DNA of 64,000 nt from Acidobacteriota bacterium (GCA_003225055.1 QIAU01000129.1:1-64000); one strand, 5' to 3'; shown: positions 5,686 to 22,526, numbered from the stretch's first letter. Made by a program: numbers and translations. The notes: generated from the sequence alone by a model not told the origin.

Positions 5686-5701
5686 TTGGGAGACTCCTGA
5701 A

Positions 5702-5707
5702 ATTATA
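5702..5707 (-). promoter_or_regulatory. Possible -10 element of the sensor operon
   Basis: A perfect TATAAT lies on the minus strand just upstream of the 408-residue protein gene. No convincing -35 hexamer is seen at 16-18 bases, and the resulting leader would be only about ten bases, so this is a weak call. Confidence 0.3.
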
Positions 5708-5796
5708 ACCGCATTGGGCCCTGGGCAGTTTGAGAGCCTCTAGTCACGTGCATCGCCGTGTAAGTCTCAAGCTTTCAAAGTGTCAGAGTTTCAAAA

Positions 5797-5913
5797 ATGT
5801 CCTCATCTGGAGCGAGCTGCCAGCCGCGAAGGATCTCGCCTGTGCCCCCGAGAATCTTGGCACTGCACGCGAGATGGTTCCCCAAGCTCAGGCGTGGCTG
5901 AGGATGAGGACAT
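5797..5913. repeat. Spacer inverted repeat with TTTCAA-type motifs
   Basis: The 258-base spacer between the band 7 gene and the sensor operon has no gene. It holds an 11-base perfect inverted repeat (ATGTCCTCATC at 5797-5807, GATGAGGACAT at 5903-5913) flanked by TTTCAAAG/CTTGAAACC-type motifs. Similar TTTCAG/GAAACC motifs recur at about 26127-26180, suggesting a dispersed intergenic repeat. Confidence 0.5.
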
Positions 5914-5943
5914 GCGTGGGACCTTGAAACCTTGAAACCTCTC

Positions 5944-7281: not shown

Positions 7282-7329
7282 GTTCCTTCTCCTTCCTGCG
7301 CCCAGGGAACGCCAGCATCTCGGTGCGGG

Positions 7330-7369
7330 GCGGGCGCGACGCCCGCACGACAGCCGCCGGGACGGCGGC
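7330..7369. repeat. Two tandem GC-rich hairpins
   Basis: Two perfect short palindromes follow each other: GCGGGCG/CGCCCGC (7330-7346, loop CGA) and GCCGCCG/CGGCGGC (7353-7369, loop GGA). They fill the 99-base spacer between the 52-residue ORF and the band 7 gene. There is no T-run, so this looks like a REP-type element or a processing/attenuation structure and not a simple terminator. Confidence 0.6.
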
Positions 7370-7380
7370 GCTGCTTCATC

Positions 7381-7539
7381 TCACTTGTTTCTGCCCGGTC
7401 CTGATCCGCGCTCTACCGCCTGTGGGGCAAAGAACAGACGGAAGACTTCTCCGAAAATGAGCTCTTCGACCAGGAGGGCTACTGCGATTGAAAAAACCAG
7501 CCCCGCCACGACCGCCACTGCTGTGATTGCGAATTGCAT
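7381..7539 (-). CDS. Small single-span membrane protein (52 aa)
   Basis: A short ORF with a strong ribosome-binding site (AGGAGG four bases before the ATG). It has one hydrophobic stretch (about residues 4-24, AITAVAVVAGLVFSIAVALL) followed by acidic residues (VEELIFGEVF) and a short charged tail. The family is not recognised. It sits between the L,D-transpeptidase and the band 7 gene on the same strand (17 bases after the transpeptidase stop), so all three are probably cotranscribed. Small one-helix partners of SPFH proteins are known elsewhere, but that link is only suggestive here. Confidence 0.7.
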   Translation of the reverse strand: MQFAITAVAVVAGLVFSIAVALLVEELIFGEVFRLFFAPQAVERGSGPGRNK

Positions 7540-7556
7540 AAGTCCTCCTGGAATCG

Positions 7557-8147
7557 CTACTGCCCGCGTTCCGGTCGACTGCTGACGAATTCGGATGTGG
7601 CGAGGGTCGTGTTCTCTTGATCCGTGCCGCCGAATATTTGCGCTGTCCGCGGATCCTGATCGCCTCGAATCTCAACCCTGTCGCCTGCTCTCAGCATCGT
7701 GAACAGCTGTTCCATATCGCGGTTGCGGAGTCGAATGCAGCCATGCGACGCCGCTTGGCCGATGGATCGGGGCGCGTTCGTGCCGTGGATCCCATACCCT
7801 TTTTTGCTGAGGCCGACCCAGCGAGTGCCGATCGGGCTGTCTTTGCCGGGCGGTATTACTTGGCCAGCATGGTAGTAGGTTGGTTTACTGACGCGGTTGA
7901 CGATCTCAAACTCGCCGGCTGGGCTCGGGCTGCTGACGGCTCCCACGGCAATCGGGAAAATTCCTAGGACATTGCCGTCGTCTAGGACGGCCAATTTACG
8001 ATCAGGGAGGCTGATTACGACCTGACGCGGGGGGCGGGAACGGCTCTTGGTGGTGCTCTGTGCCAATCCCTCCGCGCCTCCGAGGAGGGCCAGGGCCAGC
8101 AGGAATACTTTCCAGCGGGCTTTCTGCTTGCCGTTTCCTGGTTTCAT
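7557..8147 (-). CDS. L,D-transpeptidase (YkuD domain)
   Basis: A periplasmic enzyme of 196 residues expected to form 3-3 peptidoglycan cross-links or attach proteins to peptidoglycan. A signal peptide (residues 1-30, LALALLGGAEGLAQS) precedes the YkuD domain, which begins at VVISLPDRKLAVLDDG. The catalytic motif is complete: IHGTNAPRSIGQAASHGC then IRLRN, giving the His, the SHGC nucleophile Cys and the Arg. The start at ATG 8147 is chosen because it places the signal peptide at the N-terminus; a TTG at 8198 would add 17 residues without a binding site. There is no LysM or peptidoglycan-binding domain. Confidence 0.92.
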   Translation of the reverse strand: MKPGNGKQKARWKVFLLALALLGGAEGLAQSTTKSRSRPPRQVVISLPDRKLAVLDDGNVLGIFPIAVGAVSSPSPAGEFEIVNRVSKPTYYHAGQVIPPGKDSPIGTRWVGLSKKGYGIHGTNAPRSIGQAASHGCIRLRNRDMEQLFTMLRAGDRVEIRGDQDPRTAQIFGGTDQENTTLATSEFVSSRPERGQ

Positions 8148-8362
8148 CGCCGCCCCCGATTCTGGCTTGCGCCAGTGGAATTGCAGGGTGGTGTCCAAAA
8201 ATTAATCCCATGAAAACAAGCTATTTAACTAAAGAAAGGGGGCCGAGCGACGTGTGCCGTTAAAGACAACGTGTCAGAGGTGACGCGTTCCAGAAGGGAA
8301 TTGCTCGGGGAATTGAAGCTTTAACGCCCCTCGGCTTCCTTAATTGTAGGAGTACGAGCAAT

Positions 8363-10204
8363 TTAGGAGTACGAGCCGGGGCGCACCAAGGTTCGAGTCG
8401 CAGCCGGGGGCGGCGTCTGGAAGAGCTGTTCGGATTCGCTGTCGATCAGGATGAAAACAAGATCATTTGGGATCTCAGCGGGTCGTCCGGCGACAGTCAC
8501 CAGCACTGAGTCGTTAGTGATCGCGGCCACCGTGGCGTTCCGGAGGATGCGGACCTTCTTCTCGTGCTCCAGCCGGTCAACCAGTTGGCGGTTATGCGTG
8601 GGCCCGCGCTGAAAGTGGTCGCCACGATAAGTCAAGGTGACCCGATTGCGCCCGGAATAACCCAGGGCAAGAGCTGCTCGAATGGCAGAGTCCCCGCCGC
8701 CGATTATCAGGATGTCTTTGTCCTCATATCGTTGGGCATCATCAAGGCGATAAGCCACTTTGGGAAGGTCTTCTCCAGCTATTCCGAGCTTCGCCTCCGC
8801 AAAGGCTTCGACCACCGGGGCCTCGGGCGTTTTGACCACTTCTTTTTCTTTCTTGGCGGCCTTCTGTTCTCTCGCCTCTTTGCTGGCCTCCACAGTCAGA
8901 TCATGGGATCCAAGCTGGACCCCGATCTTCTTGAGGAAATCATAGGGAGGGGTGCCTCCGGCGAAGATCCAGACAAAATCGTTTGGTATCTCCATCCGCT
9001 CGCCTTTGACCTCCAGAACGACTGCATGCTCTCTGAACTCCAGGGGCGTTGAGTTGAATAGCACCTTCAGTTTTCCGCTGCGGACGCATTCTTCCACTCG
9101 CGTCGAGTTTCGCTCTTTAATGCGGCTAAAACGATCTTGCCGGTACGAGAGAGTGACCTCATTGCCAGCCTGGTGTGCCAGTCCCATGGCCGCTTCAACC
9201 GCGCTGTCGCCACCGCCGATCACCAAAATCTTCTTATTGATGTAGTGGTCAGCTTCGATCAGCCGGTACATCACCTTGGGCATTTCCTCTCCCTTAACAC
9301 CCAGTTTTCGCGGAGTACCGGTTTTACCGAGCGCCAGGATGACCGCCCGCGTGCGGTACTGCGATTTGGATGTGGTCACAGTAAAGATGCCATCCGAACC
9401 CTTTTTGATGTCGTCCACTTTTTCGCCGGCGCGGACCTGGAAGTCGGCTCGGTGCAGAACCTTGTCCCAGAACGCCAGCAGGTTCTCCTTGGAGAGTTCC
9501 GTCTTCTTGAATTTCCCGTACATGGGGAATTCCACGGGGCTGGTCATGACCAGTTTCTGACGGGGATATTTGGCCACCGTGCCACCGACCTCGTCCTGCT
9601 CCACGGTAACGTATTTCAGATTCTTCTCGATGGCCCGTAGCGAGGCGGTAATTCCCGCGGGGCCGGCACCGACGATCAGGACATCATAGACGTCTGCAGC
9701 TGGCCGGGAACCCATCGAGTTCAGCCGCTGGTCGATGGTGTCGATACATTCCCGGCCCTGGTTCACGGCATTCTTGATTAAAGCCAAGCCTCCCAGTTCG
9801 CCAACGATGAACAAATTTTGAACGTTGGTTTCGTACTCGGGAGTCAGTTGAGGCATGTCGGCGCTCATGCTGGGGCTGGCCATCACCATGGTAATGGCGC
9901 CTACCGGGCAGGCCTCCGCGCACAAGCTGTGGCCAATACACTTGTAGCCATTGACGATGACCGCCTTGCCTCCCAACATGGCGAGGACATCACCTTCCGG
10001 GCACACCATTGTGCAGCTTTGGCAACCAATGCAAAACGTCGTGTCAATGTGAGGATGCTGCGATCGAGGTCCCTCAGAGTAGAGCTTGCCCTTTTCCGCC
10101 GCGGCGCGCGCCCTCTCCTCGGTCTTTTTCAGGCCCCTGAGATAGCGGTGCAGAAAGAAAAAGGCTATGACGACGGCAACGCCTAAGGCGAGAAGCGTAT
10201 CCAT
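8363..10204 (-). CDS. Membrane-anchored ferredoxin/FAD NAD(P)H oxidoreductase with a duplicated nucleotide-binding domain
   Basis: A 613-residue redox protein. Order: one N-terminal membrane anchor (about residues 3-20); a two-cluster ferredoxin segment (CIGCQSCTMVCP near residue 58; CIGHSLCAEACP near 88, where His replaces the second Cys); an FAD-binding Rossmann fold (VLIVGAGPAG near 175); an NAD(P)-binding fold (KILVIGGGDSAVEAA near 325); a charged Lys/Glu linker; and a second NAD(P)-like fold (DILIIGGGDSAIRAA near 500). It should pass electrons between NAD(P)H and Fe-S clusters at the inner membrane. It resembles thioredoxin-reductase/YpdA-type flavoproteins but lacks an obvious redox CxxC in the flavin part. 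It is last in the cytochrome locus, 27 bases after the cytochrome b gene, so the cytochrome b is its likely partner. Confidence 0.88.
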   Translation of the reverse strand: MDTLLALGVAVVIAFFFLHRYLRGLKKTEERARAAAEKGKLYSEGPRSQHPHIDTTFCIGCQSCTMVCPEGDVLAMLGGKAVIVNGYKCIGHSLCAEACPVGAITMVMASPSMSADMPQLTPEYETNVQNLFIVGELGGLALIKNAVNQGRECIDTIDQRLNSMGSRPAADVYDVLIVGAGPAGITASLRAIEKNLKYVTVEQDEVGGTVAKYPRQKLVMTSPVEFPMYGKFKKTELSKENLLAFWDKVLHRADFQVRAGEKVDDIKKGSDGIFTVTTSKSQYRTRAVILALGKTGTPRKLGVKGEEMPKVMYRLIEADHYINKKILVIGGGDSAVEAAMGLAHQAGNEVTLSYRQDRFSRIKERNSTRVEECVRSGKLKVLFNSTPLEFREHAVVLEVKGERMEIPNDFVWIFAGGTPPYDFLKKIGVQLGSHDLTVEASKEAREQKAAKKEKEVVKTPEAPVVEAFAEAKLGIAGEDLPKVAYRLDDAQRYEDKDILIIGGGDSAIRAALALGYSGRNRVTLTYRGDHFQRGPTHNRQLVDRLEHEKKVRILRNATVAAITNDSVLVTVAGRPAEIPNDLVFILIDSESEQLFQTPPPAATRTLVRPGSYS

Positions 10205-10231
10205 GGGACCCTGTTATGCTCTAATTCTGGT

Positions 10232-11197
10232 TTAAAAGAGGCCGTAACCCATCGCCATTACCGTCGCGATGTGAATGAGCGCCAGGAACGCGAAGGTGTA
10301 GCTGAACGGTTTATGAATGACATGCCAAGCGTGGAAGACTGGCTGGGAGCGGGAGAGGAACAGGATGCGCTTGGACAGGGAAGCTTCCTCGCGCGCCACC
10401 TCGATCGCCCTTTCCAGTTCACGGTGGCCGGTGGAAAATAGCCCACCTAGTGTGGTGATGTGTTCCATTCCCCGTAGGGCGTGGCGCCGCAACCGGGCCA
10501 CGCGGAAGACACGACTCACGTCGAGCAGCATCATATAGGGAATGGCGACGAGAAATGAGAGACTCTCGACTTTTTCGGGAGCTGGCAGACTCAGCATTTC
10601 GCGCAAATTCGCTGGCGGAAGCAGCCGCTGCTCCGCCAGCTGCTGCGACAATTGCGCCTGCAATTCCTGGGTTTCTTTCCGCGACAACTCTGCAGCGTTC
10701 AGGCTGCGCGGAATCTGCGCATAAAGATATCGTCCTACCACCCCGCTGACGGAAACGGCAGCCATAATCCAGAAGGCTATGCCGGCGAACCCGCGGAATT
10801 TAAAGGAAGCATGAAAGGCAATAATAAAGGGAGCCGCTAGCCCGAACAGTATATGGATATCGAGCCAGTGCCGGGTATTACCTTGCTTCATCAACCATGC
10901 CCAACGCTTGCGGATCGGATACAGGAAGATGGCGAAGAAAATGAACATTCCCACGAAGCCAAGCTTGAGTCCGATGGCGCCGCTGGGTTTCAGAAGTGCG
11001 TGTTTAGCCGAGAACGGACGTTGCGTGGCGTCCAGCGTATAGTAGTCCCACCCGTAGATGGTCAAAGCTAGCAACAGCGAAATGGCAAGCAGGTATCCGC
11101 CCACGAGGCGGACGCGGTGCCCTCGGTTGTTAGGTTTGGCCACTGGGACCGCCCGAGCCGGGGCGACTGCAACATTAGGAGTCAAAATACTATTCAT
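10232..11197 (-). CDS. Cytochrome b-like integral membrane protein
   Basis: A 321-residue inner-membrane protein with about five to six hydrophobic helices (near residues 30-50, 78-97, 112-130, 137-157, 210-228 and 295-318) and a charged middle loop rich in Gln/Glu/Leu (170-205). Conserved-looking histidines sit in or beside helices: HWLDIHILFG, FHASFKFRG, FHAWHVIHKPF and HIATVMAMG, the pattern expected of a di-heme b-type quinone or ferric-reductase-like protein. Its ATG overlaps the stop of the upstream gene (ATGA), and the Fe-S/FAD oxidoreductase follows at once. It is inferred to link that enzyme or the quinone pool to the periplasmic multiheme cytochromes. The exact family is not certain. 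Confidence 0.78.
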   Translation of the reverse strand: MNSILTPNVAVAPARAVPVAKPNNRGHRVRLVGGYLLAISLLLALTIYGWDYYTLDATQRPFSAKHALLKPSGAIGLKLGFVGMFIFFAIFLYPIRKRWAWLMKQGNTRHWLDIHILFGLAAPFIIAFHASFKFRGFAGIAFWIMAAVSVSGVVGRYLYAQIPRSLNAAELSRKETQELQAQLSQQLAEQRLLPPANLREMLSLPAPEKVESLSFLVAIPYMMLLDVSRVFRVARLRRHALRGMEHITTLGGLFSTGHRELERAIEVAREEASLSKRILFLSRSQPVFHAWHVIHKPFSYTFAFLALIHIATVMAMGYGLF

Positions 11198-12036
11198 TGT
11201 TGTTTTGCTACCTGCTCCTCCGTACTCACCGAGAATCTCTTGTAGTCAGAAAACCGGTGGAGATTGCGCCAGTGCTGGCGCGGCGTCTCCACCTCCACCG
11301 TGGCGGTCGCGGGGAACCAATAGGCTTGTTCGGTTGCTCCAAAGCGCACCGGGGTAAATTCCACCTCAGAGCGCAATGATTTCATTCCGACATCGTCCAT
11401 TGTACCGTTTTCGATCCCGGCAGTAATCTTGGCAATCACTCCGCTATCCGGGTCGATCCAGGCCATGCCGGCGAGTTCCAACGGATACTCGCGGCCGCGC
11501 ACCGCCAAAGCAGTAACGGAGCGCGTGTTGCGAATATGCTGAAAGTGGACCCTGCTGAATTTCTTGCCATTGATGACCTCATCTCCGGCCGCGCTGAATT
11601 GAAAACTCCCGGCGTAGTAGGGATGGAAAATCAGAAAGAGAGTGGCAAACCCATTGCTGACCAGCAGCGGTGTGGTTTGATCCTTCTCTTTTTCCTTCTT
11701 TTCGTGCTTCTTGCTCTGTTTCGGGTCCTGCACGGCAAGCCGCGACTCATCCAAGGTGAGTTCCCCGCTGGCATTGCTCAGAATCACGAGATAATCGTAG
11801 GTGGATTCTGCCTTGCGCAGGACCTTCTCGTTCTCACCGAGCTTTTCCTGGGTGACGTGCTCCGTACATTTCACTTCGGAAAACTGGTCAACAAAATTCG
11901 ATACATGCTTACTGGTGCGCGCCAGCAGTTGATCCACCGTGGTCTCTGTCGCCGACACAAGCGACGAGAGACACGCGATAGTTACTACCAGTTTCCCAAC
12001 TCTCAACCACGATAAAAACCTGTTTGAATACATCAT
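11194..12036 (-). CDS. Exported protein of unknown function in the cytochrome locus
   Basis: A 280-residue protein with an N-terminal signal (VGKLVVTIACLSSLVSA) and a mixed beta-rich body (AWIDPDSGVIAKITAGIEN, FTPVRFGATEQAYWFPATATVEVET) of the kind seen in LolA/outer-membrane-lipoprotein-sorting-like folds; a Lys/Glu cluster lies near residues 105-118. There is no heme motif. Its start ATG overlaps the stop of the beta-barrel gene (ATGA) and its stop overlaps the cytochrome b start (ATGA), so it is cotranslated with both. It may help assemble or bridge the membrane components. Function is unknown. Confidence 0.75.
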   Translation of the reverse strand: MMYSNRFLSWLRVGKLVVTIACLSSLVSATETTVDQLLARTSKHVSNFVDQFSEVKCTEHVTQEKLGENEKVLRKAESTYDYLVILSNASGELTLDESRLAVQDPKQSKKHEKKEKEKDQTTPLLVSNGFATLFLIFHPYYAGSFQFSAAGDEVINGKKFSRVHFQHIRNTRSVTALAVRGREYPLELAGMAWIDPDSGVIAKITAGIENGTMDDVGMKSLRSEVEFTPVRFGATEQAYWFPATATVEVETPRQHWRNLHRFSDYKRFSVSTEEQVAKQQ

Positions 12037-15000
12037 TGTCCCTTGAACTTTGAATCAAACCGGTATCCCAGACTCAAATACCACTGGTCGTAGTTCAGCA
12101 CTCCGCCACGGTTCCAGGTGAACCCACCCATGAAAAAGTAATGCCTGCCTACGTTCGTATCCAGGTTGGCGGTTACGAACTTAGATGTGTTGCTGGCCGC
12201 CAGGGTTGACACAAATGACTGACGTCCCGCAAGCAATTCGCCGTGGAAAGAATCGCGGATGTTGCGTGAGAGCGAAATCGCCTCGTAAAAGCCCCTGCCA
12301 AAGGAGCTGTTAAATTTCGAATAGTGCAGGTCAGCCCGAACCCCGGTCCACGGCACGCGACCAAACGTCACCCCGTACAATTGGTTCAGAGAGGCTGCAG
12401 GGTCGCCGGAACGGCTACTCTTACCCAGGGTAGTATACAGCCAGACCTGCCGGATTACCTCAACCCGTGTCCCTGCGCTATAGCCCTGGAACAGGTACTT
12501 GTCGAGCAAGGTGGTTCCAACCAGGGTCAGGTCGAAGGTCGGAATGTCGCGAAAATAGTTGTGGTTCAGGTCGAATTCGATGCGTTCATGGGGCTGTAGC
12601 CGGACCGTCAGGAAACTGCGGCCGACGCCAGCGCCAGGAGCTTGCACGACAGCATTTCCTTTCGGGTTATCGGCCTGGAATGCGTGATAGATCCCCAAGA
12701 ACCGCTTGTAATAAAGCCCGTTCTCGGCAAAGACGAACGGTCGGTTCGGGGCCCACTTCAACATGCTGAGTCCGACACCGGAGGTGCTGCTATACCGGAA
12801 GCTGTCAAAGCTGCCGCCCGAAATATTAACGAACGACCCGGCAATGCGCTGGTTCGGGTTGTAACTGTACGAACTGGGATCCGGCGTCGAGCCCGCGAAG
12901 ACGCCGAGGATCGTCCTTCCGATACGACCGCCCACATACCCGCCGTCGATGGTATCGAGGCTGGTGGCCCAGGGAAGATAGAGGCGACCGAAGCCAGCGA
13001 CAAACGGAGACCGCGGATTGTCATAGGTTAGACCCAAGTGATAGGTACGATTGATCAGGTCCTGCAAACTGGTCTGGCTCGAATTGGTGGAAGTCAGACG
13101 GCCACGCCAAAATCCGCTCAGGTTCCAGTAGGTGCCGTAGATTCGCGTGATATCAGTGCGCACCACTAAACCGAAATTCGAACTCGTCATCGGAGTTGCG
13201 CCGTGACTCATCATGCCGGAGTAGTCAAACCCGAGACGTCCGCGGGCCCGATTGACTTCGGGCAGCGGCGGGCGCGGAACCTCGGCGCGCGCCTCTTCAT
13301 CCAAGGTGTCGCTCTGGGTGAAGCTAACGACGGACGGGTATTTCCGCGTGGCGCTCAAAGAGCGCTGCGCGACCATGGCTTCGGTCTCATCCGAAGAGAG
13401 GAACGCCAGATCGCCAGACTTGAGGTCGCGCTTTGGAGTGTGAATGTCAGCTACCGACGAAGAATCGGCGACCGCCGTCACCTGTAATTCGGCGACAATG
13501 CTCTTTGACGGTACGGCGGCCGCAGTGGGCTGCGCTAGAAAAGGATCCTTGTCGAGGACGATCAGCTTCGTGCCCTCGGCGAGACCCGAGGCCCGCCCAC
13601 CGTCAAGATAAGCCACGCCTTCTGCCACGTACTTCACCTTATAACTGACACGAATGTCGCTATTGCTCGGCCGCGTCAATAGCACGGGAACTTGGGTCTC
13701 GAGGTCGGGCTTAGCGGGCCCAGGTGCAGGGGCGGCGCTGGCAACCAAGGTCGGTTTGGCCGATTGGGGCGGAGCCGGTGTCTTTTTTGACGCTTCTGCG
13801 GAGCCAATTGACGCTGTCGGCGGCGTACCGGTTATAACGCCAGCCCGAACCTGCGGCAGATTGTTGCTCAGGCTGGGCTGCGCTGCGGCTGGAGCTTGCC
13901 CTGCCTGCGTTGCCGGAGGGGCCGCTGATGCCGCGGTCGCCTTAGCGGTTGCGGTCACAGCCGTGGTGGGCTGAGCCGCGACTTTTGTCTGGGGCGCAGT
14001 CGCGGGATTGGCCGATGTCGCCGAGGAGCTTACGACGGTGCTGGTTGACGCCCCTGGAAATGCCGGCTGCTCCCACAAAGGAACTTGTTTCGAGGCAACT
14101 GGGGTCGCGGTTGTTCCAGGCCTAGTGGCGCTGGCGGTCGTGGGAACTCTCGCGGCCTGCGCCGAGGGCGCCTCTTGTTTAGAGGCAACCGCTGCCGTGG
14201 TGTTGCCGGATGTGGCGGCTGTTGGAAACGCGGGCTGCTCCCATAAAGGAACTTGTTTGACTGGGGCGGTGGCGGTTCCAGGCTTGGTGGCGCTGGCGGT
14301 CACAGGAACCCTCGCGGGCGCCGGGGGCGGTTGTGGATTGGGGGCAACGGGCGTCGTGGCCGCTCCAGACGCGCTGGCGGCCGCGGTCGTCTGACCTGTT
14401 TCTGGCCGTGCCCAGAGGGGAACTTGTTTCGAGGCGACTGGGGCGGTGGCGGTTCCAGGCCTGGTGGCGCTGGCGGTCACAGGAACTCTCGCGGGCGGCG
14501 CCGATGGAGCTTCTTGTTTAGAGGCAACCACAGTCGTGGTACTGGCGGACGTGGCACTCCCGGTCGGGGGAAACGCGGGTTGCTCCCAGAGCGGAACTTG
14601 TTTCGAGGCGACCGGCGCCGTAGTTGCTTGAGGCGTGGTAGCACTCGTGACGGTGGCCCCCGAACTCGGTGCAACAGCTGGTGGCTTCTGCGACTGGGGT
14701 GCCGGCCCAGATTTCATTTGTGCCGGTGTCGCTGGAACACTGCTCTTCGCCGTCAAAGAGCCAGCTGGTGTCGCTTGCAAAGGCTGGGTTGCCGGGGCGC
14801 CGGCCTTGCTTTGCGCCGTCGAGGTGCTGCTGGCAATCACCGGAGCAGTCTTGTTTGCGGCTGACTGCACTGGTTGCACTGTCTTGGCACCAGCAGATGA
14901 CGGTGCCGGGGTTGTTGCTGGTTGCGCCGCTTTCGGTTGGGGCTTGGGCGTGGAGGCCTGCTTCTGATCCACGGGCGTCATTCGGTCCCCATGTACGACG

Positions 15001-15752
15001 GCAACTTCGGGGAAACCCGCCTCCGGCTTGGTAAGGGCCAAGCCCGTATTGGCGCTTGAACTATTTCGACCGGGAACAACTCCTTGTCCTGGTGTGCCGG
15101 TGTTAGGCGACACGGTGCCTTGTTGCAGGCTGCCAAAATTCGGATTGGCGGCGCTGGGACGAGATGTACTCGCCGTCGTCGTGCCCGAGGGAGGATTCGA
15201 TTGTGCTGCTGGAGTTTTGATCGGGGGCAGGGATGGCGGCGGTGTTACAGGCGCCGGAGCCCTCGCAGTCGTGGGAAGATTCTCAGGCGCTTCGTGATGC
15301 AGCTTTCCCAGGAGCGTTCCGGTAGCCGCGGGAACGGGCGCACCCTTCCGCTGCCGTGCGGTCTCGGGAGCCAGCAGCGTCAGCGTGACTTTCTTGCCGT
15401 CCGTGGCTAACTCATATAGACGCGGTTCGACCAAGTCCAGCACCACGCGCGTCACCGGCGGATTGGTGCTGTTCAGCCCGATCCGCACCATCTTCACTCC
15501 GCCTTGATTTACGGTGGCCCGCTGCTGCTTCGCGCTGGATGAAGTATTGGGGAGCTCCAGAACCAGCCGGTCAGGGTTAGTGGCAACGATGACGGTCGGA
15601 ACCACAGGCTGGGTGAGGGTAACCTCAATTTTGACCTGCTCACCGACGGGGGCCACGTCCACGTTGCGGATTTCAACCGGCCTGTCGGCGGGATCTTGCC
15701 CAACGGCAAACGACACCAAGACGAGGAGGAGGATTATATTTATTAACTTCAT
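12033..15752 (-). CDS. AMIN-domain / Pro-Ala-Thr linker / outer-membrane beta-barrel fusion protein
   Basis: A 1239-residue outer-membrane protein. After a signal peptide (residues 1-18) comes an AMIN domain (about 25-130; peptidoglycan or secretin-associated in other proteins), then a very long Ala/Pro/Thr/Ser linker (about 140-700) with four copies of a KQVPLW(E/A)(Q/R)P motif, a small beta domain (about 710-820, SGLAEGTKLIVLDKDP) and a C-terminal region of about 400 residues made of alternating aromatic beta strands ending LSLGYRFDSKFKGQ, typical of a porin-type barrel. It lies directly after the 31-heme cytochrome gene and before the cytochrome b gene, so it is a good candidate for the porin of an electron conduit, tethered to the cell wall by AMIN and linker. 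SD: AGGA upstream of ATG. Confidence 0.82.
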   Translation of the reverse strand: MKLINIILLLVLVSFAVGQDPADRPVEIRNVDVAPVGEQVKIEVTLTQPVVPTVIVATNPDRLVLELPNTSSSAKQQRATVNQGGVKMVRIGLNSTNPPVTRVVLDLVEPRLYELATDGKKVTLTLLAPETARQRKGAPVPAATGTLLGKLHHEAPENLPTTARAPAPVTPPPSLPPIKTPAAQSNPPSGTTTASTSRPSAANPNFGSLQQGTVSPNTGTPGQGVVPGRNSSSANTGLALTKPEAGFPEVAVVHGDRMTPVDQKQASTPKPQPKAAQPATTPAPSSAGAKTVQPVQSAANKTAPVIASSTSTAQSKAGAPATQPLQATPAGSLTAKSSVPATPAQMKSGPAPQSQKPPAVAPSSGATVTSATTPQATTAPVASKQVPLWEQPAFPPTGSATSASTTTVVASKQEAPSAPPARVPVTASATRPGTATAPVASKQVPLWARPETGQTTAAASASGAATTPVAPNPQPPPAPARVPVTASATKPGTATAPVKQVPLWEQPAFPTAATSGNTTAAVASKQEAPSAQAARVPTTASATRPGTTATPVASKQVPLWEQPAFPGASTSTVVSSSATSANPATAPQTKVAAQPTTAVTATAKATAASAAPPATQAGQAPAAAQPSLSNNLPQVRAGVITGTPPTASIGSAEASKKTPAPPQSAKPTLVASAAPAPGPAKPDLETQVPVLLTRPSNSDIRVSYKVKYVAEGVAYLDGGRASGLAEGTKLIVLDKDPFLAQPTAAAVPSKSIVAELQVTAVADSSSVADIHTPKRDLKSGDLAFLSSDETEAMVAQRSLSATRKYPSVVSFTQSDTLDEEARAEVPRPPLPEVNRARGRLGFDYSGMMSHGATPMTSSNFGLVVRTDITRIYGTYWNLSGFWRGRLTSTNSSQTSLQDLINRTYHLGLTYDNPRSPFVAGFGRLYLPWATSLDTIDGGYVGGRIGRTILGVFAGSTPDPSSYSYNPNQRIAGSFVNISGGSFDSFRYSSTSGVGLSMLKWAPNRPFVFAENGLYYKRFLGIYHAFQADNPKGNAVVQAPGAGVGRSFLTVRLQPHERIEFDLNHNYFRDIPTFDLTLVGTTLLDKYLFQGYSAGTRVEVIRQVWLYTTLGKSSRSGDPAASLNQLYGVTFGRVPWTGVRADLHYSKFNSSFGRGFYEAISLSRNIRDSFHGELLAGRQSFVSTLAASNTSKFVTANLDTNVGRHYFFMGGFTWNRGGVLNYDQWYLSLGYRFDSKFKGQ
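14040..14640. repeat. Degenerate tandem repeats coding for KQVPLW linker units
   Basis: Within the linker of the barrel protein, four imperfect DNA units spaced about 165-175 bases carry a core reading (plus strand) GGAACTTGTTT, coding on the minus strand for KQVPLW. The intervening parts are Ala/Thr/Pro codons. The repeat explains several long Gly/Arg or Ala/Val ORFs on the opposite strand. Confidence 0.75.
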
Positions 15753-15855
15753 TTCGTCCTGCTTAACTATCTTTAAATATTGGCTTCCGCCAGCCCTAGA
15801 TACCCCCAGTCCGGGGTGACAGCTTACACTTCCAAAACTCTGCCGACACGCTGCG

Positions 15856-18237
15856 CTAGCCGCCTTTGTGACACGCGTAGCAATTCACGCTGTTATACAC
15901 ATACCCGCCAACATTCGGGTGACGGAAACCGGCCGCGTTATTGTTCCCGTGGCATCCCGTGCACTGGAATACGGCATAGTCGCTCGAGTTAGTGTGGCAG
16001 GTGGCACAGACGCCGTTGGCGCCGCCGTGGTTCAGCGGGAAGTACGTGTGATTGAATGTCGCTCCCGTCCACGCCGTTGTGGTGTGGCACGTCGCGCAGG
16101 TTGTCGGAAACCCGGCAGCCTGGTGGTTCGGACTCGTGGTGGCGGTATATAGCGCCTTGTGACACGAGTAGCAATCGGTCGGAACCGTCGTGTAGTTGTT
16201 GTTGACGTGGCAATTGGCGCAGGCAACGGTCGTGTGCGCACCCGTCAGCGGGAACGGCGTGTTGTTGTGGTTGAACGTGGACGGGATCCACGCCGTCGTG
16301 TTGTGGCAGACATCGCACTGCTGCGGGAAGCCTGACGTGACGTGGTTCGGATTGGTCGTGCTTTGGAAATTTGTCAAATGGCACGTGACGCATGCCCCGC
16401 TGCTCAGGCTGAAATTATTATTTCCGTGACACTGATTGCACTGCAGGGTGGTATGCGCTCCGGTAAGCGCAAAGCCGGTAGTCGCATGATTAAAGGTAGC
16501 TCCGGCCCAAGATGCCGTGCTGTGGCATAGCGAGCAATCGGTCGGGAAGCCGGCAGCCGCGTGGCCTGGGTTGTTTGTGTTCTGGTAGTCGGTCATGTGG
16601 CACGAAGCACAAGCCGTGTTCGCGGAGGTCAAATTGTAGTTTCCACCTGCGTGGCATTGTGCGCAGGCCACCGTCGCATGGAAGCCGGTCAAGGCCCAGC
16701 CGGTGCTGGCGTGATCGAATGTCCCGTTACCCCAGGTGGTCGTGTTATGGCACTGCTGACAGGTCTGCGGGAACCCCGCCTGCACGTGGCTCGGGTTGTT
16801 CGTGCCCTGATAGTCGGTGAGATGGCACGATACGCACAAGGTATTTGCACTGGTCAGGGTGTAGTTCCCGTTAATGTGGCACTGACTGCACTGCAGAGTG
16901 TTATGCGCACCCGTCAGGGCGAATCCCGTGGTCGAGTGATCGAAGATGGCACCCATCCAACTTGTGGTGTTGTGGCATTGCTGACAGGTCTGCGGGAAAT
17001 TGGCTTGAACGTGACTGGGGTTATTCGTGTTCTGGAAGTCCGTGAGGTGGCAGGTTACGCAAGCTGCGCTGGTCAGATTGTAGTTTCCGTTGACGTGGCA
17101 TTGGGCGCACTGCACAGCCGCATGCGCGCCAGTCAAGGGGAATCCGGACTTGGAGTGATCGAACTGTGCCGGTTGCCATGCCCCAGTGTTGTGGCACTGC
17201 TCGCAGGTCTGCGCGAATCCTTGCTGCACGTGGTTCGGATTGGTCGCGCCCTGGAAGTCCTTGAGGTGACAGGACACGCACGTCGTTGTCGTCAAATTGT
17301 AGTTCCCGTTAATGTGACACTGGCTGCACTGCACAGTAGCGTGCGCACCAGTTAACGGGAAGCCCGTGGTGGAGTGGTCAAAGCTCGCTCCGGCCCACGA
17401 CACTGTGTTGTGGCACTGCTGGCACATCTGCGAAAAGCCGCCACTGACGTGATTCGGGTTAGTCGTCCCCTGGAAATCCTTCAAATGGCAAGAGGCGCAG
17501 GCCGTGTTCGCGCTGGTCAGGTTGTAATTGTTATTCACGTGACACTGCTCGCAAGCTACAGTCGCGTGAGCGCCAGTCAACGGGAAGCCGCTGGTCGCGT
17601 GATCGAACTTGGCATTCAGCCACGTATCCATTCCGTGGCACTGCTCGCAAGTGGTCGAGAACTTGGAGGCGACGTGATTCGGATTCGAGGTTTTCTGGTA
17701 GCTCTGGGCGTGGCACGAATAGCACTGAGTCGACAGCCCCTGGAACTGACCAACCGCGGCGCCCTTATGGCAGGCATCACACTCCAGGGCGGCGTGCGCT
17801 CCGATCAGCGGAAAACGATTCTGGTGGTTTTGGATGGACTGGATCGAGACGTTCCAACCTTTCACGCTGTGGCACTGCTCGCAATTGACGCCCATCTGCC
17901 GTTTGTGAATATCGGCGTGGCAATCGGCGCACCTGCTACCCACATTAGAGAAGACCGGCTTGGTGTGACACTGGGTGCAGGCCACATTCTCGTGCATGCC
18001 CCGCAAAGGATATTTGGTCTTATTGTGATCGAATTCGGGGACGGCCCGGATAGGCTTCCACCCAATCGCGGTGTGACAGTTTTGGCAGGGAATGTTCAAG
18101 TCACCGTGCGGACTCCGCGTCTGGGCAAGGTTCTGGCTCTGTCCGCTGACAGGGTTATCCGCCGGCATAAAGGACAACAGCAGACCAATCAGAAGGGTCG
18201 GGATCAAGGTGCCACCCCCGATTAAACTTGTATACAC
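15856..18237 (-). CDS. 31-heme c-type cytochrome with triple-heme repeats
   Basis: A 793-residue exported multiheme cytochrome. I count 31 CXXCH motifs. After a signal segment (about residues 8-32) and six leading motifs, the protein is a run of about eight units of near 62 residues, each with three motifs: (T)C.QCHNT.W, FDH.TTGFPLTGAH..VQC.QCH, and C.(S/T)CHL.DFQ.T.NP.HV. The FDH and GAH histidines are candidate sixth ligands. Low charge and high Asn/Thr content suggest an extended solenoid, like a molecular wire. The start is GTG at 18237; TTG at 18207, with GGGGGTGG before it, is an alternative. It lies 103 bases upstream of the barrel gene and is preceded by a sigma-54-like element. Confidence 0.92.
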   Translation of the reverse strand: MYTSLIGGGTLIPTLLIGLLLSFMPADNPVSGQSQNLAQTRSPHGDLNIPCQNCHTAIGWKPIRAVPEFDHNKTKYPLRGMHENVACTQCHTKPVFSNVGSRCADCHADIHKRQMGVNCEQCHSVKGWNVSIQSIQNHQNRFPLIGAHAALECDACHKGAAVGQFQGLSTQCYSCHAQSYQKTSNPNHVASKFSTTCEQCHGMDTWLNAKFDHATSGFPLTGAHATVACEQCHVNNNYNLTSANTACASCHLKDFQGTTNPNHVSGGFSQMCQQCHNTVSWAGASFDHSTTGFPLTGAHATVQCSQCHINGNYNLTTTTCVSCHLKDFQGATNPNHVQQGFAQTCEQCHNTGAWQPAQFDHSKSGFPLTGAHAAVQCAQCHVNGNYNLTSAACVTCHLTDFQNTNNPSHVQANFPQTCQQCHNTTSWMGAIFDHSTTGFALTGAHNTLQCSQCHINGNYTLTSANTLCVSCHLTDYQGTNNPSHVQAGFPQTCQQCHNTTTWGNGTFDHASTGWALTGFHATVACAQCHAGGNYNLTSANTACASCHMTDYQNTNNPGHAAAGFPTDCSLCHSTASWAGATFNHATTGFALTGAHTTLQCNQCHGNNNFSLSSGACVTCHLTNFQSTTNPNHVTSGFPQQCDVCHNTTAWIPSTFNHNNTPFPLTGAHTTVACANCHVNNNYTTVPTDCYSCHKALYTATTSPNHQAAGFPTTCATCHTTTAWTGATFNHTYFPLNHGGANGVCATCHTNSSDYAVFQCTGCHGNNNAAGFRHPNVGGYVYNSVNCYACHKGG
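15990..17700. repeat. Internal tandem repeat region of the 31-heme gene
   Basis: About eight imperfect units of 180-190 bases code for the three-heme repeat of the cytochrome. The middle units are the most alike at DNA level (recurring TGGCACTGCTGACAGGTCTGCGGGAA-type segments), indicating recent duplication; edge units are more diverged. Confidence 0.75.
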
Positions 18238-18621
18238 ACCTGACTATTAAACAGACAGAACTGACTTAAGAAACGTAGAAGAATCTAACAGACATCCAGC
18301 TAGACGAAGTGATCAGTGTTGAATTCTAATGCAATTCGACACCCAGACAGAGTATGGTCCTATTGTACCAGTGGAAAAGCTACGCAAGGCAATATTCGTC
18401 AGACCAATGGGGGCATGTCCTATTGCCTAAGCCTGGGCTCCCCATCGTGTGGCCCGCCTTAAGACCTGTAAGTTCTGCCTGCCTGAACGCAGAATTTACT
18501 TTTCAGAACCCCGTTCAAAATTCGGATCGGTAGGGGGAAGCACTTAGGGTTCAAGAACTTATACAGGACCGCGCTGGGGCAGTCTGAATCATGCTGGGGC
18601 ATTTTTCGACCCAGACCGCCC
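18238..18621. other. Spacer between the two multiheme cytochrome genes
   Basis: 384 bases without a convincing gene. A 64-codon minus-strand reading at 18459-18653 runs into the upstream cytochrome gene and has no family features. The spacer holds the sigma-54-like element given separately and a pair of direct repeats GTCCTATTG (near 18357 and 18417). Confidence 0.5.
18330..18345 (-). promoter_or_regulatory. Sigma-54-like -24/-12 element before the 31-heme gene
   Basis: On the minus strand TGGGTGTCGAATTGCA gives GG-N10-GC spacing with a good -12 half (TTGCA) but a poor -24 half (TGGGTG instead of TGGCAC). Transcription would start near 18320, about 83 bases before the GTG. It shares GAATTGCA with the sites at 20969 and 22779. 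Confidence 0.4.
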
Positions 18622-20568
18622 TTAGGACTTACCGGCCGCTTTGCCCGGACCATGGCAAGCGGAGCATTCCTTCGGGCAAGGCTTGTAAAACAGGACCGAC
18701 TTGTCCATTACCATCCGCAGTTCTTTGTGGCAGGCTTCGCAGCGAACCCTCTCATGGGCACCTTTCAGCGAGAAACTGGTGCGCCGCTCATGATCAAACA
18801 GAGACGGCTTCCACCGGGTGGCGTTGTGGCAATCAGCACAGGGCGTAATCCGATTTGCTTTGGCGAACTGGGCACCGTGAACGTCTTCATGGCAGTCCTC
18901 GCACTTGCTGGGCGCCGCCTTGAAGTCCGCATCGATCAGCTTGGTCCCCATATTGGGCGGCTTGTGGCAATCCATGCAGGCGGTAGCTCGATGCGCGCCC
19001 AGCAGAGGGAAGGACGTCTTGGCATGATCAAATCGCTGCAGATCTTTCCATGAATCCGTCGAATGACACGCCTGACAACCCGCCGGCTTGCGGTCCATCC
19101 GGACTTGTTTCATGGTCTCGTCGAACTGGCCTTTATGCGGGTCCTTATGGCAGACGGTGCAGGAGCTGTCGTCGAAGCGGTAGATCACCGCGTACTTGGC
19201 CTCGGGAGTGGAACGTTGCTTGTGGCAATCACCGCAGGGAGTTGCGATATGGCCGCCGGTGAGCGGGAAGCGCGTTTGCTTGTGCTTCGCCAACGTGAAG
19301 GTCGAGGGATGGTAACCCTTGAGGTCGTGGCACTGTTCGCAGCGATTCAGGTAAGGCGTTCCGGCGAACTGACGCTGGTGCTCGTCTTTGTGACAGTCCA
19401 TGCATTTGCCGAACTTGACCTTGAAGAGCGTGTCCTTCCCCTTGGGTATATGGCACCCTTCGCACTTCACTTGGGCGTGCTTGCCTTCCAGCGGGTAAGC
19501 GCTTTTGGCGTGTTCTTTCACTCCATAAGTCGAAGGCTTGAAGCCGTCCAAGGTGTGACAGCCGGCGCATTCGATTCCCCCCGCTCGTTTCACGAATTGG
19601 CCGTTGTGCACGTCCTTGTGGCAGTCGATGCATTTCTGGAAAGCCAGAGGCTTCTTGAAGTCAGCCTTGAGGTGGCATTGCGAACATTCAACCGTCTGGT
19701 GTTTGCCGAGCAAGGGATATTTCGTTTTGGAATGGTCGAATTTTTCGTTGACGGTTTGCAGCGAGCTGCGTTTCCAGCCGCTCGTATTGTGGCAGGCCTG
19801 GCAAGCTTGCTGCTTGAAGCTGCCCTTGTGCGGATCAGCGTGGCAATCGTCGCACTTGCCGAAGGCCAAACCGGTCCAACGCGGCTTATTATCCGCTCCG
19901 GGAGTGTGGCACTTCTGGCAAGTCACCTGCGCGTGCAGTCCCGTTAGCGGGTATTTGGTTTTCGAGTGATCGAATTGAGTAAGGTTCTTCCAGTCTTCAA
20001 AATTGTGGCAGCGCTCACATTTTTGTCCCAGGCGACCGTTGTGTGCGTCCTGGTGGCAGGTGATGCAAGCTTGAGGCACGGCGAGAAAAGTCTTGTTCAG
20101 GTCTCTGACCTGAATGTTGAGTTTCTCGCTGGGAGCTACGTGTTCGGCGTTGTGGCATTTGTTGCAGGCCACGCCGGCGTGTTTTCCGACCAGGTTGTAG
20201 CCAGTCTTACTGTGGTCAAAGCCGGCTGGCGTGGGAGTCCATTTGACCAGGGGAAAATCCACGCCGTTATGGTCGGAGTGGCATTTGGCACACCCCTGGC
20301 TAGAGCCAGGTTGCAGTCCGTAAGTGGCATGCAATCCGCGATGTGCATTCACGCGGGCGCCGATTTCGGTATGACACTCCACGCACTTGAGGGCGGCCTG
20401 CCCGCCGAACTGGTGGCAGGAGACGCAATGGCTCGCGCCCTCCAGTGTCCGGTGGGCGCGGGCCAGCGGCCCTGGAGAAATCTGAGCCCTAGCTGATCCC
20501 GCACTGCACCCGAGAATGATCGCGAGAAAAGCAACCAACCACGCTGTGGCCGAATGGTCTGACGCCAA
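18622..20568 (-). CDS. 23-heme c-type cytochrome
   Basis: An exported multiheme cytochrome of about 648 residues. I count 23 CXXCH motifs. The repeat theme is C..CH..DGF or W, FDH(S/A)KT.(Y/F)PL.G.H..V.C..CH, C.DCH.D.H.GQF, again with FDH and G-H histidines as likely distal ligands. Unlike the 31-heme protein it is Lys-rich. The reading frame extends to an ATG at 20793, but residues there look non-coding; the signal sequence (LVAFLAIILGCSAGSARAQ) starts after a TTG at 20568, which I take as start with low certainty. ILGC could be a lipobox, making it a lipoprotein; otherwise cleavage follows ARA. It is first gene of the electron-transfer locus and divergent from the sigma-54 activator. Confidence 0.88.
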   Translation of the reverse strand: MASDHSATAWLVAFLAIILGCSAGSARAQISPGPLARAHRTLEGASHCVSCHQFGGQAALKCVECHTEIGARVNAHRGLHATYGLQPGSSQGCAKCHSDHNGVDFPLVKWTPTPAGFDHSKTGYNLVGKHAGVACNKCHNAEHVAPSEKLNIQVRDLNKTFLAVPQACITCHQDAHNGRLGQKCERCHNFEDWKNLTQFDHSKTKYPLTGLHAQVTCQKCHTPGADNKPRWTGLAFGKCDDCHADPHKGSFKQQACQACHNTSGWKRSSLQTVNEKFDHSKTKYPLLGKHQTVECSQCHLKADFKKPLAFQKCIDCHKDVHNGQFVKRAGGIECAGCHTLDGFKPSTYGVKEHAKSAYPLEGKHAQVKCEGCHIPKGKDTLFKVKFGKCMDCHKDEHQRQFAGTPYLNRCEQCHDLKGYHPSTFTLAKHKQTRFPLTGGHIATPCGDCHKQRSTPEAKYAVIYRFDDSSCTVCHKDPHKGQFDETMKQVRMDRKPAGCQACHSTDSWKDLQRFDHAKTSFPLLGAHRATACMDCHKPPNMGTKLIDADFKAAPSKCEDCHEDVHGAQFAKANRITPCADCHNATRWKPSLFDHERRTSFSLKGAHERVRCEACHKELRMVMDKSVLFYKPCPKECSACHGPGKAAGKS

Positions 20569-20984: not shown

Positions 20985-21113
20985 CGTCAAGATTGCAACT
21001 AGCGACTGGAGCCATTATTGATCCTTGCCGCCACGAACCAGGGCGGGCGGGGGTGGGGTGTGCCTGCCAGAGGCGCACTGGCCGGCAACGACAGCAATAA
21101 AAAAAAGGGAAAG

Positions 21114-22526
21114 ATGGGTCGGATCCTGATTGTCGATGATGAACCCAATATGCGGCAGACCGTGGCCTCCAATCTGCGCCAGGATGGGCATGAAATTTCC
21201 GAAGCGGTCAGCGTAGACGAGGCCCGCAGCAATCTGCTTGCAAACGATTTTGACGCAGTTCTCACCCGGCAGCCAATGCCGGACGGCGAAGGACTCACCG
21301 TTCTCGATGCCGCCCGGGAAAACGATCCCTCCCTTTCCGTCGTCCTCTTGACTGCGGTTGCTTCCCTTGAGTTGGCTGTGGAAGGCCTGGGGCAAGGCGC
21401 TTTCGATTTCCTGACGATGCCTTTCCAACTGGAAGTCCTGCGTGCCACGGCGCGCCGCGCCTGTGAGCACACAGCGCTGCGGCGGAAAAACTTGCTGCTT
21501 ACGGAAACTGTGGCTCGCCTGGAGGGCGGGGCAGAGCTCTACGGTGAAGGTCCTGCCGTGCGGGAGGTGCGAGAGAAAATCGCGCGGATTGCTCCCACCA
21601 ACGCTCCTGTCTTGATCACGGGGGAAACCGGAACCGGCAAGGAGCTTGTGGCTCGCGCGATCCATCGCAACAGCCCGCGTGCAAGCAGACCCTTCCTAGC
21701 CCTCAATTGCGCCGCTTCTGCGGAGACGCTGTTGGAAAACGAATTATTCGCCCACCAGAAAGGCGCTTTCGCCGGCGCGGGTCGCGCACGCCAGGGACTC
21801 GTCGAAGCTGCCAATGAAGGTACGCTCTTCCTGGACGAAGCCGGAGAGATTTCGCCAGCCACACAGGCCAAGTTGCTTTGCATAATAGCCGAGGGCCGGC
21901 TGCCTCGCGTCGGATCCGCCAAACCCCGAGTTGTGAACGTTCGGGTGCTCGTCGCCACACGCCGAGACCTGCCGCAGCGCGTTCGAGATGGGCTGTTCCG
22001 GGAGGATCTGTATTACCGCTTGGCGGCTGAGCCGATTCATGTCCCCCCCTTGCGGGAGAGGCTCGAGGATATTCCTGGACTCTGCGACTGGTTGTCCCGG
22101 CAAGTCGCCACCGAGCTTAGACTGCCAGTGCGCGCCATCAGCGGAGAGGCGGTGGATAATCTCAAACGCTATCACTTTCCGGGAAATGTCCGTGAGCTCA
22201 AGAACCTGATTGAGCGTGCCTACATCCTTTCCCGCAATCAGGAGATCGGCCCGGAGGACTTCCCGCTCGCACAAGGAGTGGCTCTGGGAGCAAATCCGGG
22301 AGTTAATTCCGGACGTGCAGTGGATGTGGTGAGGATGGAAAAGCTCCCCCAACCATTCGACCTCAGCGCATTCCTGGACCAGACAGAGAAAGACTTGATT
22401 GTGCGCACCCTGGCGTCCACTGGGGGCGCGCAGGCAGAGGCGGCGCGCCGCCTCGGGCTCTCCCGCAGCGCACTCGCTTACAAGCTCACCAAGTATGGCA
22501 TCCGCGGAAGCAGCAGCGTCAACTAG
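21114..22526 (+). CDS. Atypical sigma-54 activator with degenerate receiver
   Basis: A 470-residue NtrC-type protein: receiver (about 1-118), AAA+ domain (about 140-375) and Fis-type helix-turn-helix at the end (QAEAARRLGLSRSALAYKLTKYGI). The receiver keeps the acid pair (VDDE) and the Thr (LLTA) but the phospho-Asp is Arg (VLTRQPMP) and the conserved Lys is Met (FLTMPF), so it should not be phosphorylated in the normal way. In the AAA+ domain Walker A GETGTGKE and FLDEAGE are present but the GAFTGA loop reads GAFAGA, losing the Thr that contacts sigma-54. ATG 21114 with GGGAAAG upstream is chosen over 21018 because the receiver begins there. It is divergent from the cytochrome locus, its likely target. 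Confidence 0.9.
   Translation: MGRILIVDDEPNMRQTVASNLRQDGHEISEAVSVDEARSNLLANDFDAVLTRQPMPDGEGLTVLDAARENDPSLSVVLLTAVASLELAVEGLGQGAFDFLTMPFQLEVLRATARRACEHTALRRKNLLLTETVARLEGGAELYGEGPAVREVREKIARIAPTNAPVLITGETGTGKELVARAIHRNSPRASRPFLALNCAASAETLLENELFAHQKGAFAGAGRARQGLVEAANEGTLFLDEAGEISPATQAKLLCIIAEGRLPRVGSAKPRVVNVRVLVATRRDLPQRVRDGLFREDLYYRLAAEPIHVPPLRERLEDIPGLCDWLSRQVATELRLPVRAISGEAVDNLKRYHFPGNVRELKNLIERAYILSRNQEIGPEDFPLAQGVALGANPGVNSGRAVDVVRMEKLPQPFDLSAFLDQTEKDLIVRTLASTGGAQAEAARRLGLSRSALAYKLTKYGIRGSSSVN

What the first reader, a model, noticed from the sequence alone, without database searches (positions are those of the whole stretch)
8363..20568. Candidate trans-envelope electron conduit: 54 heme motifs, porin-like barrel, cytochrome b and NAD(P)H/Fe-S module
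Six same-strand genes combine two giant multiheme cytochromes (23 and 31 CXXCH), an AMIN-anchored beta-barrel, an exported helper, a cytochrome b and a membrane Fe-S/FAD oxidoreductase; three genes are linked by ATGA overlaps. Known extracellular electron-transfer conduits (MtrCAB, porin-cytochrome complexes) pair multihemes with a barrel, but I do not recognise this composition. It could export electrons to minerals or partners, or take them up.
Basis: partly seen in the sequence, partly recalled or inferred. Interest (0 to 1): 0.9.

Follow-up and report, generated by a model that had tools for sequence, protein, structure and literature searches.

The report
PCC3-type trans-envelope electron conduit
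A six-gene operon in an acidobacterium most likely encodes a protein wire that carries electrons across both cell membranes to the outside; it has the design of a conduit (PCC3) proposed earlier in iron-oxidising bacteria, and its five core parts recur together in at least six other bacterial phyla.

Summary
The composition is not unknown: it matches PCC3 (He et al. 2017, Proteobacteria, function unproven) in gene content, heme numbers, residues per heme and the exact inner-membrane-protein motifs. New here: a FAD/NAD(P)/[4Fe-4S] protein with an invariant histidine in the second cluster motif; a trunk cytochrome of fixed size (20 or 23 hemes) beside an outer cytochrome that grows in whole three-heme steps (7 to 73 hemes); two further outer-cytochrome/barrel pairs in the same genome without the core; a predicted 22-strand barrel. 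Electron export is favoured over uptake, but direction and activity are not shown, and common descent with the proteobacterial PCC3 proteins could not be tested. Verdict: new variant of a known, functionally untested kind.

The parts
18622..20568 (-). MHC-A: exported 23-heme cytochrome c, fixed-size trunk (predicted periplasmic)
   Evidence: 23 CXXCH; 23 or 20 hemes with conserved spacing in 65 of 72 genes counted, overlapping loci included; 37-67% identity to relatives; 27.0 residues per heme
15856..18237 (-). MHC-B: exported 31-heme cytochrome c = 7-heme N-cap + 7 three-heme repeats + 3-heme C-cap (predicted outer/extracellular wire)
   Evidence: 31 CXXCH, spacing 36,16,16,34,19,25, then (32,16-18,25) repeated, then 30,15,27; heme counts in relatives 3n+1 in 46 of 50. 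Start codon uncertain
12033..15752 (-). outer-membrane barrel protein: signal peptide, AMIN domain (about 15381-15665), long Pro/Ala/Ser linker, small FlgT_C-like domain (about 13398-13646), 22-strand barrel (about 12054-13250)
   Evidence: Pfam AMIN; AlphaFold2; FlgT_C weak in 22 of 44 relatives; barrel family beside the cytochromes in nearly all complete loci
11194..12036 (-). exported helper of unknown fold, 280 aa, lineage-specific
   Evidence: no Pfam family above cut-off and no PDB relative; only in Terriglobia-type loci
10232..11197 (-). transmembrane cytochrome b with two bis-His heme sites, PCC3-type inner-membrane protein
   Evidence: W111-x3-H115-x13-H129, S151GxxG155, W291-x3-H295-x13-H309, invariant or nearly so in 19 sequences; five conserved hydrophobic segments; weak Ferric_reduct/DUF4405
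8363..10204 (-). membrane-anchored FAD/NAD(P) oxidoreductase with two [4Fe-4S] motifs, the second with an invariant His (CxxHxxCxxxCP); this copy has a partial duplication of the NAD(P) domain
   Evidence: Pfam/NCBIfam; H92 in 54 of 54 rows and N-terminal TM helix 4-22; duplication residues 301-414 vs 473-586, 44% identity

Best explanation
The operon encodes a PCC3-type porin-cytochrome conduit. Proposed path: NAD(P)H in the cytoplasm reduces the FAD of the Fe-S protein; electrons pass its two [4Fe-4S] clusters (the second probably His-ligated) to the diheme cytochrome b, which carries them across the inner membrane and may exchange with quinone; the fixed 23-heme MHC-A bridges the periplasm; the 22-strand barrel seats the 7-heme N-cap of MHC-B in the outer membrane; the three-heme repeats of MHC-B form an arm of variable length outside the cell that contacts minerals, humics or partner cells. 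The AMIN domain probably anchors the barrel to the cell wall. Shown: gene content, heme numbers and modularity, synteny, cytochrome b motifs, barrel prediction. Inferred: locations, which cytochrome enters the barrel, the path, and the direction (export favoured).
For: 27 of 29 relatives with about 8 kb on both sides of cytochrome b hold all other core parts (layouts); a plasmid of Emticicia oligotrophica carries the set with a cytochrome c assembly gene, ccsA. MHC-A and MHC-B are fused into one chain in some Acidobacteriota (L038, 51 hemes; L042, 40 hemes), which argues that they touch. MHC-A size is nearly constant while MHC-B grows by whole triheme units. MHC-B plus barrel recur as stand-alone pairs in the same genome, one with only the 7-heme cap, which ties the cap to the barrel. 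The barrel has 22 strands and resembles TonB-dependent transporter barrels, OprD porins and pilus ushers; the first enclose a plug domain, so room for a slender cytochrome is plausible. PCC3 gene set, heme medians 21 and 34, 22-39 residues per heme and inner-membrane-protein motifs all match. Three heme-copper oxidases but no RuBisCO in the genome, so export by a heterotroph fits better than lithoautotrophic uptake.
Against: No experiment: no heme stain, location or current. The AlphaFold model of MHC-A is of middling quality (pLDDT 74, pTM 0.34) and had no Foldseek match, so its wire shape is inferred. No complex of barrel and cytochrome was modelled. Known PCC3 carriers include Fe(II) oxidisers, which suggests uptake. 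Sequence homology to proteobacterial PCC3 proteins could not be tested. Patchy: a same-genus genome lacks the barrel.
Confidence: 0.8

Rival explanations
1. Same conduit, opposite direction: electrons from Fe(II), Mn(II), electrodes or partner cells enter through MHC-B and MHC-A to cytochrome b, feeding quinone and oxidases, and the Fe-S/FAD protein uses part of them to make NAD(P)H.
For: PCC3 is best known in Fe(II)- and Mn(II)-oxidising bacteria; the genome has three heme-copper oxidases and an alternative complex III-like locus; the cluster occurs in isolates that are, from general knowledge, aerobes (Occallatibacter savannae, Emticicia oligotrophica).
Against: No RuBisCO; many carriers are lineages usually met in anoxic settings (Calditrichota, Zixibacteria, KSB1; background knowledge); uphill NAD(P)+ reduction would need an energy input that no gene of the cluster supplies. 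Conduits of this kind may run both ways.
Confidence: 0.25
2. The barrel is not a seat for a heme chain but an export channel (usher-like) for MHC-B, which then forms a free extracellular filament.
For: First Foldseek matches are pilus ushers; MHC-B is repetitive and pairs with the barrel.
Against: TM-scores to ushers are low (about 0.3-0.4) and VIA ranks TonB-type barrels and OprD porins as high or higher; MHC-A/MHC-B fusions keep the outer wire tied to the trunk.
Confidence: 0.12
3. Redox buffer: the many hemes store electrons in the periplasm and at the surface (a capacitor) during oxygen changes, with no true acceptor outside.
For: Very high heme load (54 in two proteins); suggested as a side role for PCC3 (PMC10734462); no terminal reductase in the cluster.
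Against: A store needs neither a barrel nor length-graded repeats; barrel and MHC-B stay together even where the core is absent.
Confidence: 0.08

Closest known systems
PCC3 (porin-cytochrome c complex 3; He et al. 2017 PMC5566968; Gallionellaceae, PMC10734462)
   Same: Barrel + large periplasmic MHC (median 21 hemes; 21/24/27 in Gallionellaceae) + larger variable extracellular MHC (median 34, repeats) + about 300 aa inner-membrane protein with five TM, SGXXG on TM4 and WX3HX13H on TM3 and TM5; 22-39 residues per heme
   Different: Reported from Proteobacteria; described as four genes, without the FAD/NAD(P)/Fe-S protein; barrel there predicted with up to 42 strands, here 22 and in Terriglobia fused to AMIN; MHC-A here has 20 or 23 hemes, not multiples of three
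MtrCAB / MtoAB / PioAB
   Same: Logic: multiheme cytochrome in or at an outer-membrane barrel
   Different: DmsE/MtrA-family score 50 bits against a cut-off of 192; no MtrB/PioB Pfam match; 22 strands against 26 in MtrB (background knowledge)
PCC4 (He et al. 2017)
   Same: Inner-membrane protein with the same motifs; subgroup II has an Fe-S protein
   Different: PCC4 has small cytochromes and no extracellular MHC
CbcL/MtoC inner-membrane quinol enzymes
   Same: Cytochrome b joined to multiheme electron transfer (PMC6295460)
   Different: CbcL is one fused chain; here cytochrome b is separate and nearer to ferric-reductase/DUF4405 families
Karst PCCs near a ferredoxin-NADP reductase (PMC13264449, group 1)
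   Same: Porin of about 20 strands with a reductase gene nearby
   Different: Centred on decaheme cytochromes; no 23/31-heme pair described

Membership tests
PCC3 | porin-like outer-membrane barrel encoded with the cytochromes | tested here: met
   22-strand barrel predicted, syntenic in 27 of 29 relatives
PCC3 | periplasmic MHC with about 21 hemes | tested here: met
   23 hemes, signal peptide-like N-terminus; periplasmic location itself not shown
PCC3 | larger extracellular MHC with repeats, 22-39 residues per heme | tested here: met
   31 hemes, triheme repeats, 24.5 residues per heme; extracellular location not testable here
PCC3 | about 300 aa inner-membrane protein, five TM, SGXXG on TM4, WX3HX13H on TM3 and TM5 | tested here: met
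   all motifs found in the right helices; a sixth weak hydrophobic stretch (210-228) is not conserved
PCC3 | sequence homology of the proteins to Sideroxydans/Leptothrix PCC3 | not testable with these tools
   no proteobacterial PCC3 record could be reached; plasmid searches gave only Emticicia
PCC3 | function in extracellular electron transfer | not testable with these tools
   unproven for PCC3 itself
MtrCAB/MtoAB | decaheme MtrA-family cytochrome | tested here: not met
   23 hemes; DmsE-family score 50 against cut-off 192
MtrCAB/MtoAB | MtrB/PioB-family barrel | tested here: not met
   no MtrB/PioB Pfam match in 44 members; fold comparison with MtrB inconclusive
OmbB-OmaB-OmcB | OmbB-family porin | not tested
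   no OmbB sequence at hand

The most novel reading that the evidence does not exclude
A plug-and-play conduit: one inner-membrane NAD(P)H/cytochrome b module and one fixed 23-heme trunk serve several exchangeable outer-membrane heads (barrel + MHC-B with 31, 16 or only 7 hemes in this genome), whose reach is set by the number of three-heme units, so that one cell can address acceptors at different distances.
Probability: 0.35. Interest if true: 0.78.

Novelty: new variant of a known kind. Interest (0 to 1): 0.62.

Why it matters
PCC3 was inferred from proteobacterial genomes, a few of them iron oxidisers, and never tested. The same design, with an added NAD(P)/Fe-S module, turns out to be widespread in Acidobacteriota, Calditrichota, Zixibacteria, Neomarinimicrobiota and others, including cultivated strains (Occallatibacter savannae; Emticicia oligotrophica, on a plasmid). 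If it works as proposed, extracellular electron transfer would be a trait of abundant soil and ocean lineages not usually counted as electroactive, and its function could be tested by gene deletion in isolates. The fixed trunk and length-quantised outer wire give a direct structural prediction.

Tried and rejected
DNA pattern for two spaced CXXCH in the own genome gave nothing (spacing too strict). The full 19-row cytochrome b alignment had no usable scan word; a 9-row subset worked. Foldseek found no PDB match for the MHC-A model: no conclusion on its fold. MtrB did not appear among the VIA rows shown: not evidence of a different fold. The helper has no Pfam or PDB relative; I leave its function open and do not count it as core. 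Attempts to centre a genome search on Pseudomonadota failed, so homology to proteobacterial PCC3 stays untested. The weak cytochrome b hits with E 1e-4 to 1e-15 belong to other, often longer fused proteins and were not counted as the cluster. The YkuD gene downstream (7557-8198) was considered and dropped: 164-base gap and not next to the cluster in relatives. Promoter and terminator scans were no better than shuffles.

Full report
WHAT IS THERE. All six genes are on the minus strand at the stated coordinates. In transcription order: MHC-A (18622-20568, 23 CXXCH), MHC-B (15856-18237, 31 CXXCH), barrel protein (12033-15752), helper (11194-12036), cytochrome b (10232-11197), Fe-S/FAD protein (8363-10204). 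The last four are tightly packed, with two 4-base overlaps. Shuffled versions of the two cytochromes give under one CXXCH on average. No Pfam family covers the barrel or the helper; the cytochrome b reaches only weak Ferric_reduct/DUF4405 scores.

CONSERVATION. Cytochrome b was used as the tag. In 199 Acidobacteriota genomes 37 have a match and 21 a strong one (E below 1e-30). In close relatives the order MHC-A, MHC-B, barrel, helper, cytochrome b, Fe-S is kept; in other classes the order changes but the parts stay. A scan of one genome per species found 212 loci, of which the best 80 were read: Acidobacteriota, Calditrichota, Zixibacteria, Neomarinimicrobiota, Krumholzibacteriota, Ignavibacteria, KSB1, Eisenbacteria, WOR-3 and Gemmatimonadota. 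Of 29 loci with at least 7.9 kb on both sides, 27 have the Fe-S protein, the barrel and two cytochromes of at least 16 hemes. The tree of cytochrome b follows phyla broadly, with some mixing. Emticicia oligotrophica (Bacteroidota) carries the set on plasmid pEMTOL02 with a ccsA gene, so the set can probably move.

HEME ARITHMETIC. MHC-A has 20 hemes (FCB-type lineages) or 23 (mostly Acidobacteriota) in 65 of 72 complete genes counted, with nearly identical spacing. MHC-B has a 7-heme N-cap with spacing 36,16,16,34,19,25, then n units of three hemes (about 32,16,25), then usually a 3-heme C-cap; 46 of 50 complete genes have a count of the form 3n+1, from 7 to 73. Some loci in these counts are the same genome reached by two routes, so the numbers are slightly inflated. 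In three Acidobacteriota the two cytochromes appear as one chain (L038, L041, L042).

SEPARABLE OUTER MODULE. The genome of the window has two more MHC-B + AMIN-barrel pairs without cytochrome b, MHC-A or Fe-S protein beside them: contig C73 (16 hemes) and C263 (7 hemes, the cap alone). Only one cytochrome b of this family was found in the genome. This suggests that MHC-B, not MHC-A, is the closest partner of the barrel, and that the 7-heme cap is the part that meets it. That is inference.

BARREL. AlphaFold2 on 44 aligned sequences gives a small N-terminal domain (weakly FlgT_C-like) and 22 beta strands (mean pLDDT 81, pTM 0.65). Foldseek and VIA-align match ushers, OprD-type porins and TonB-dependent transporters (VIA Z about 15-18). 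TonB-type barrels enclose a plug domain, so a lumen large enough for a slender cytochrome is plausible.

INNER MEMBRANE SIDE. Cytochrome b has H115/H129 and H295/H309, each pair 14 apart, in the third and last conserved helices, the pattern for two b hemes stacked across a membrane. The Fe-S protein has an N-terminal membrane helix followed by basic residues (soluble part probably cytoplasmic), two ferredoxin motifs of which the second reads C89-x2-H92-x2-C95-x3-C99 with His in 54 of 54 rows, and a Rossmann GGGDSA motif. By analogy with other His-ligated clusters this one may have a shifted potential and act as the exit; this is inference. The window copy has an extra, partial copy of the NAD(P) domain (residues 473-586) that relatives lack.

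COMPARISON WITH THE KNOWN. He et al. 2017 (PMC5566968) named PCC3: porin, extracellular MHC (median 34 hemes), periplasmic MHC (median 21), and an inner-membrane protein of about 300 residues with five helices, SGXXG on the fourth and WX3HX13H on the third and fifth; 22-39 residues per heme. Each of these sequence features is met here. PCC3 was reported in Alpha-, Beta- and Gammaproteobacteria; later work finds it in Gallionellaceae with 21/24/27 and 10-35 hemes and states that its function is untested (PMC10734462, PMC12442390). In the held library no paper listed for PCC3 also mentions Acidobacteria; the library is open-access only. A bioanode study found other PCC types in Holophaga and Ignavibacteria (PMC7399161), and a karst study lists PCCs in Acidobacteriota without this composition (PMC13264449). 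I therefore file this as PCC3-type by architecture; common descent with the proteobacterial proteins was not testable.

DIRECTION. The genome has three heme-copper oxidases and no RuBisCO. Together with the NAD(P)-type protein this favours disposal of electrons to the outside by a facultative heterotroph. Uptake remains possible (rival 1).

VERDICT. Real, conserved and interesting; a new variant of a known but functionally untested kind. The most useful new points are the Fe-S/FAD module, the fixed trunk against the quantised outer wire, the separable outer heads, and the wide distribution including isolates.

Noticed in passing
G000 contig C98, locus L151 5175-17552: A different candidate conduit in the same genome: 11-heme cytochrome, NHL-repeat protein, 611 aa barrel-like protein, SurA/PpiC-type isomerase and 4-heme cytochrome, the composition described for the Uet (undecaheme) complex, followed upstream by 16- and 8-heme cytochromes and a petB-type cytochrome b.
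   Followed up: partly
window 8447-8788 (Fe-S/FAD protein residues 473-586): Extra partial copy of the NAD(P)-binding domain, 44% identical to residues 301-414, absent from relatives; frame intact.
   Followed up: partly
L131 (Emticicia oligotrophica pEMTOL02, 3595-15393): Whole conduit set plus ccsA on a plasmid of a cultivated Bacteroidota.
   Followed up: yes
L154 4857-8514 and L155 2729-5714 (G000 C73, C263): Stand-alone MHC-B + AMIN-barrel pairs with 16 and 7 hemes.
   Followed up: partly
window 21018-22526 (+): NtrC-type sigma-54 response regulator divergent from the operon; a possible regulator, but not seen next to the cluster in relatives.
   Followed up: no
G000 contig C94, locus L152 7515-13879, and C94:81537-82865: Alternative complex III-like genes (5-heme cytochrome, 1018 aa, 459 aa, 178 aa, monoheme) with a heme-copper oxidase nearby.
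   Followed up: no
L069 and L070: MHC-B with 67 and 73 CXXCH motifs, among the largest counts (PMC5566968 reports up to 85).
   Followed up: no
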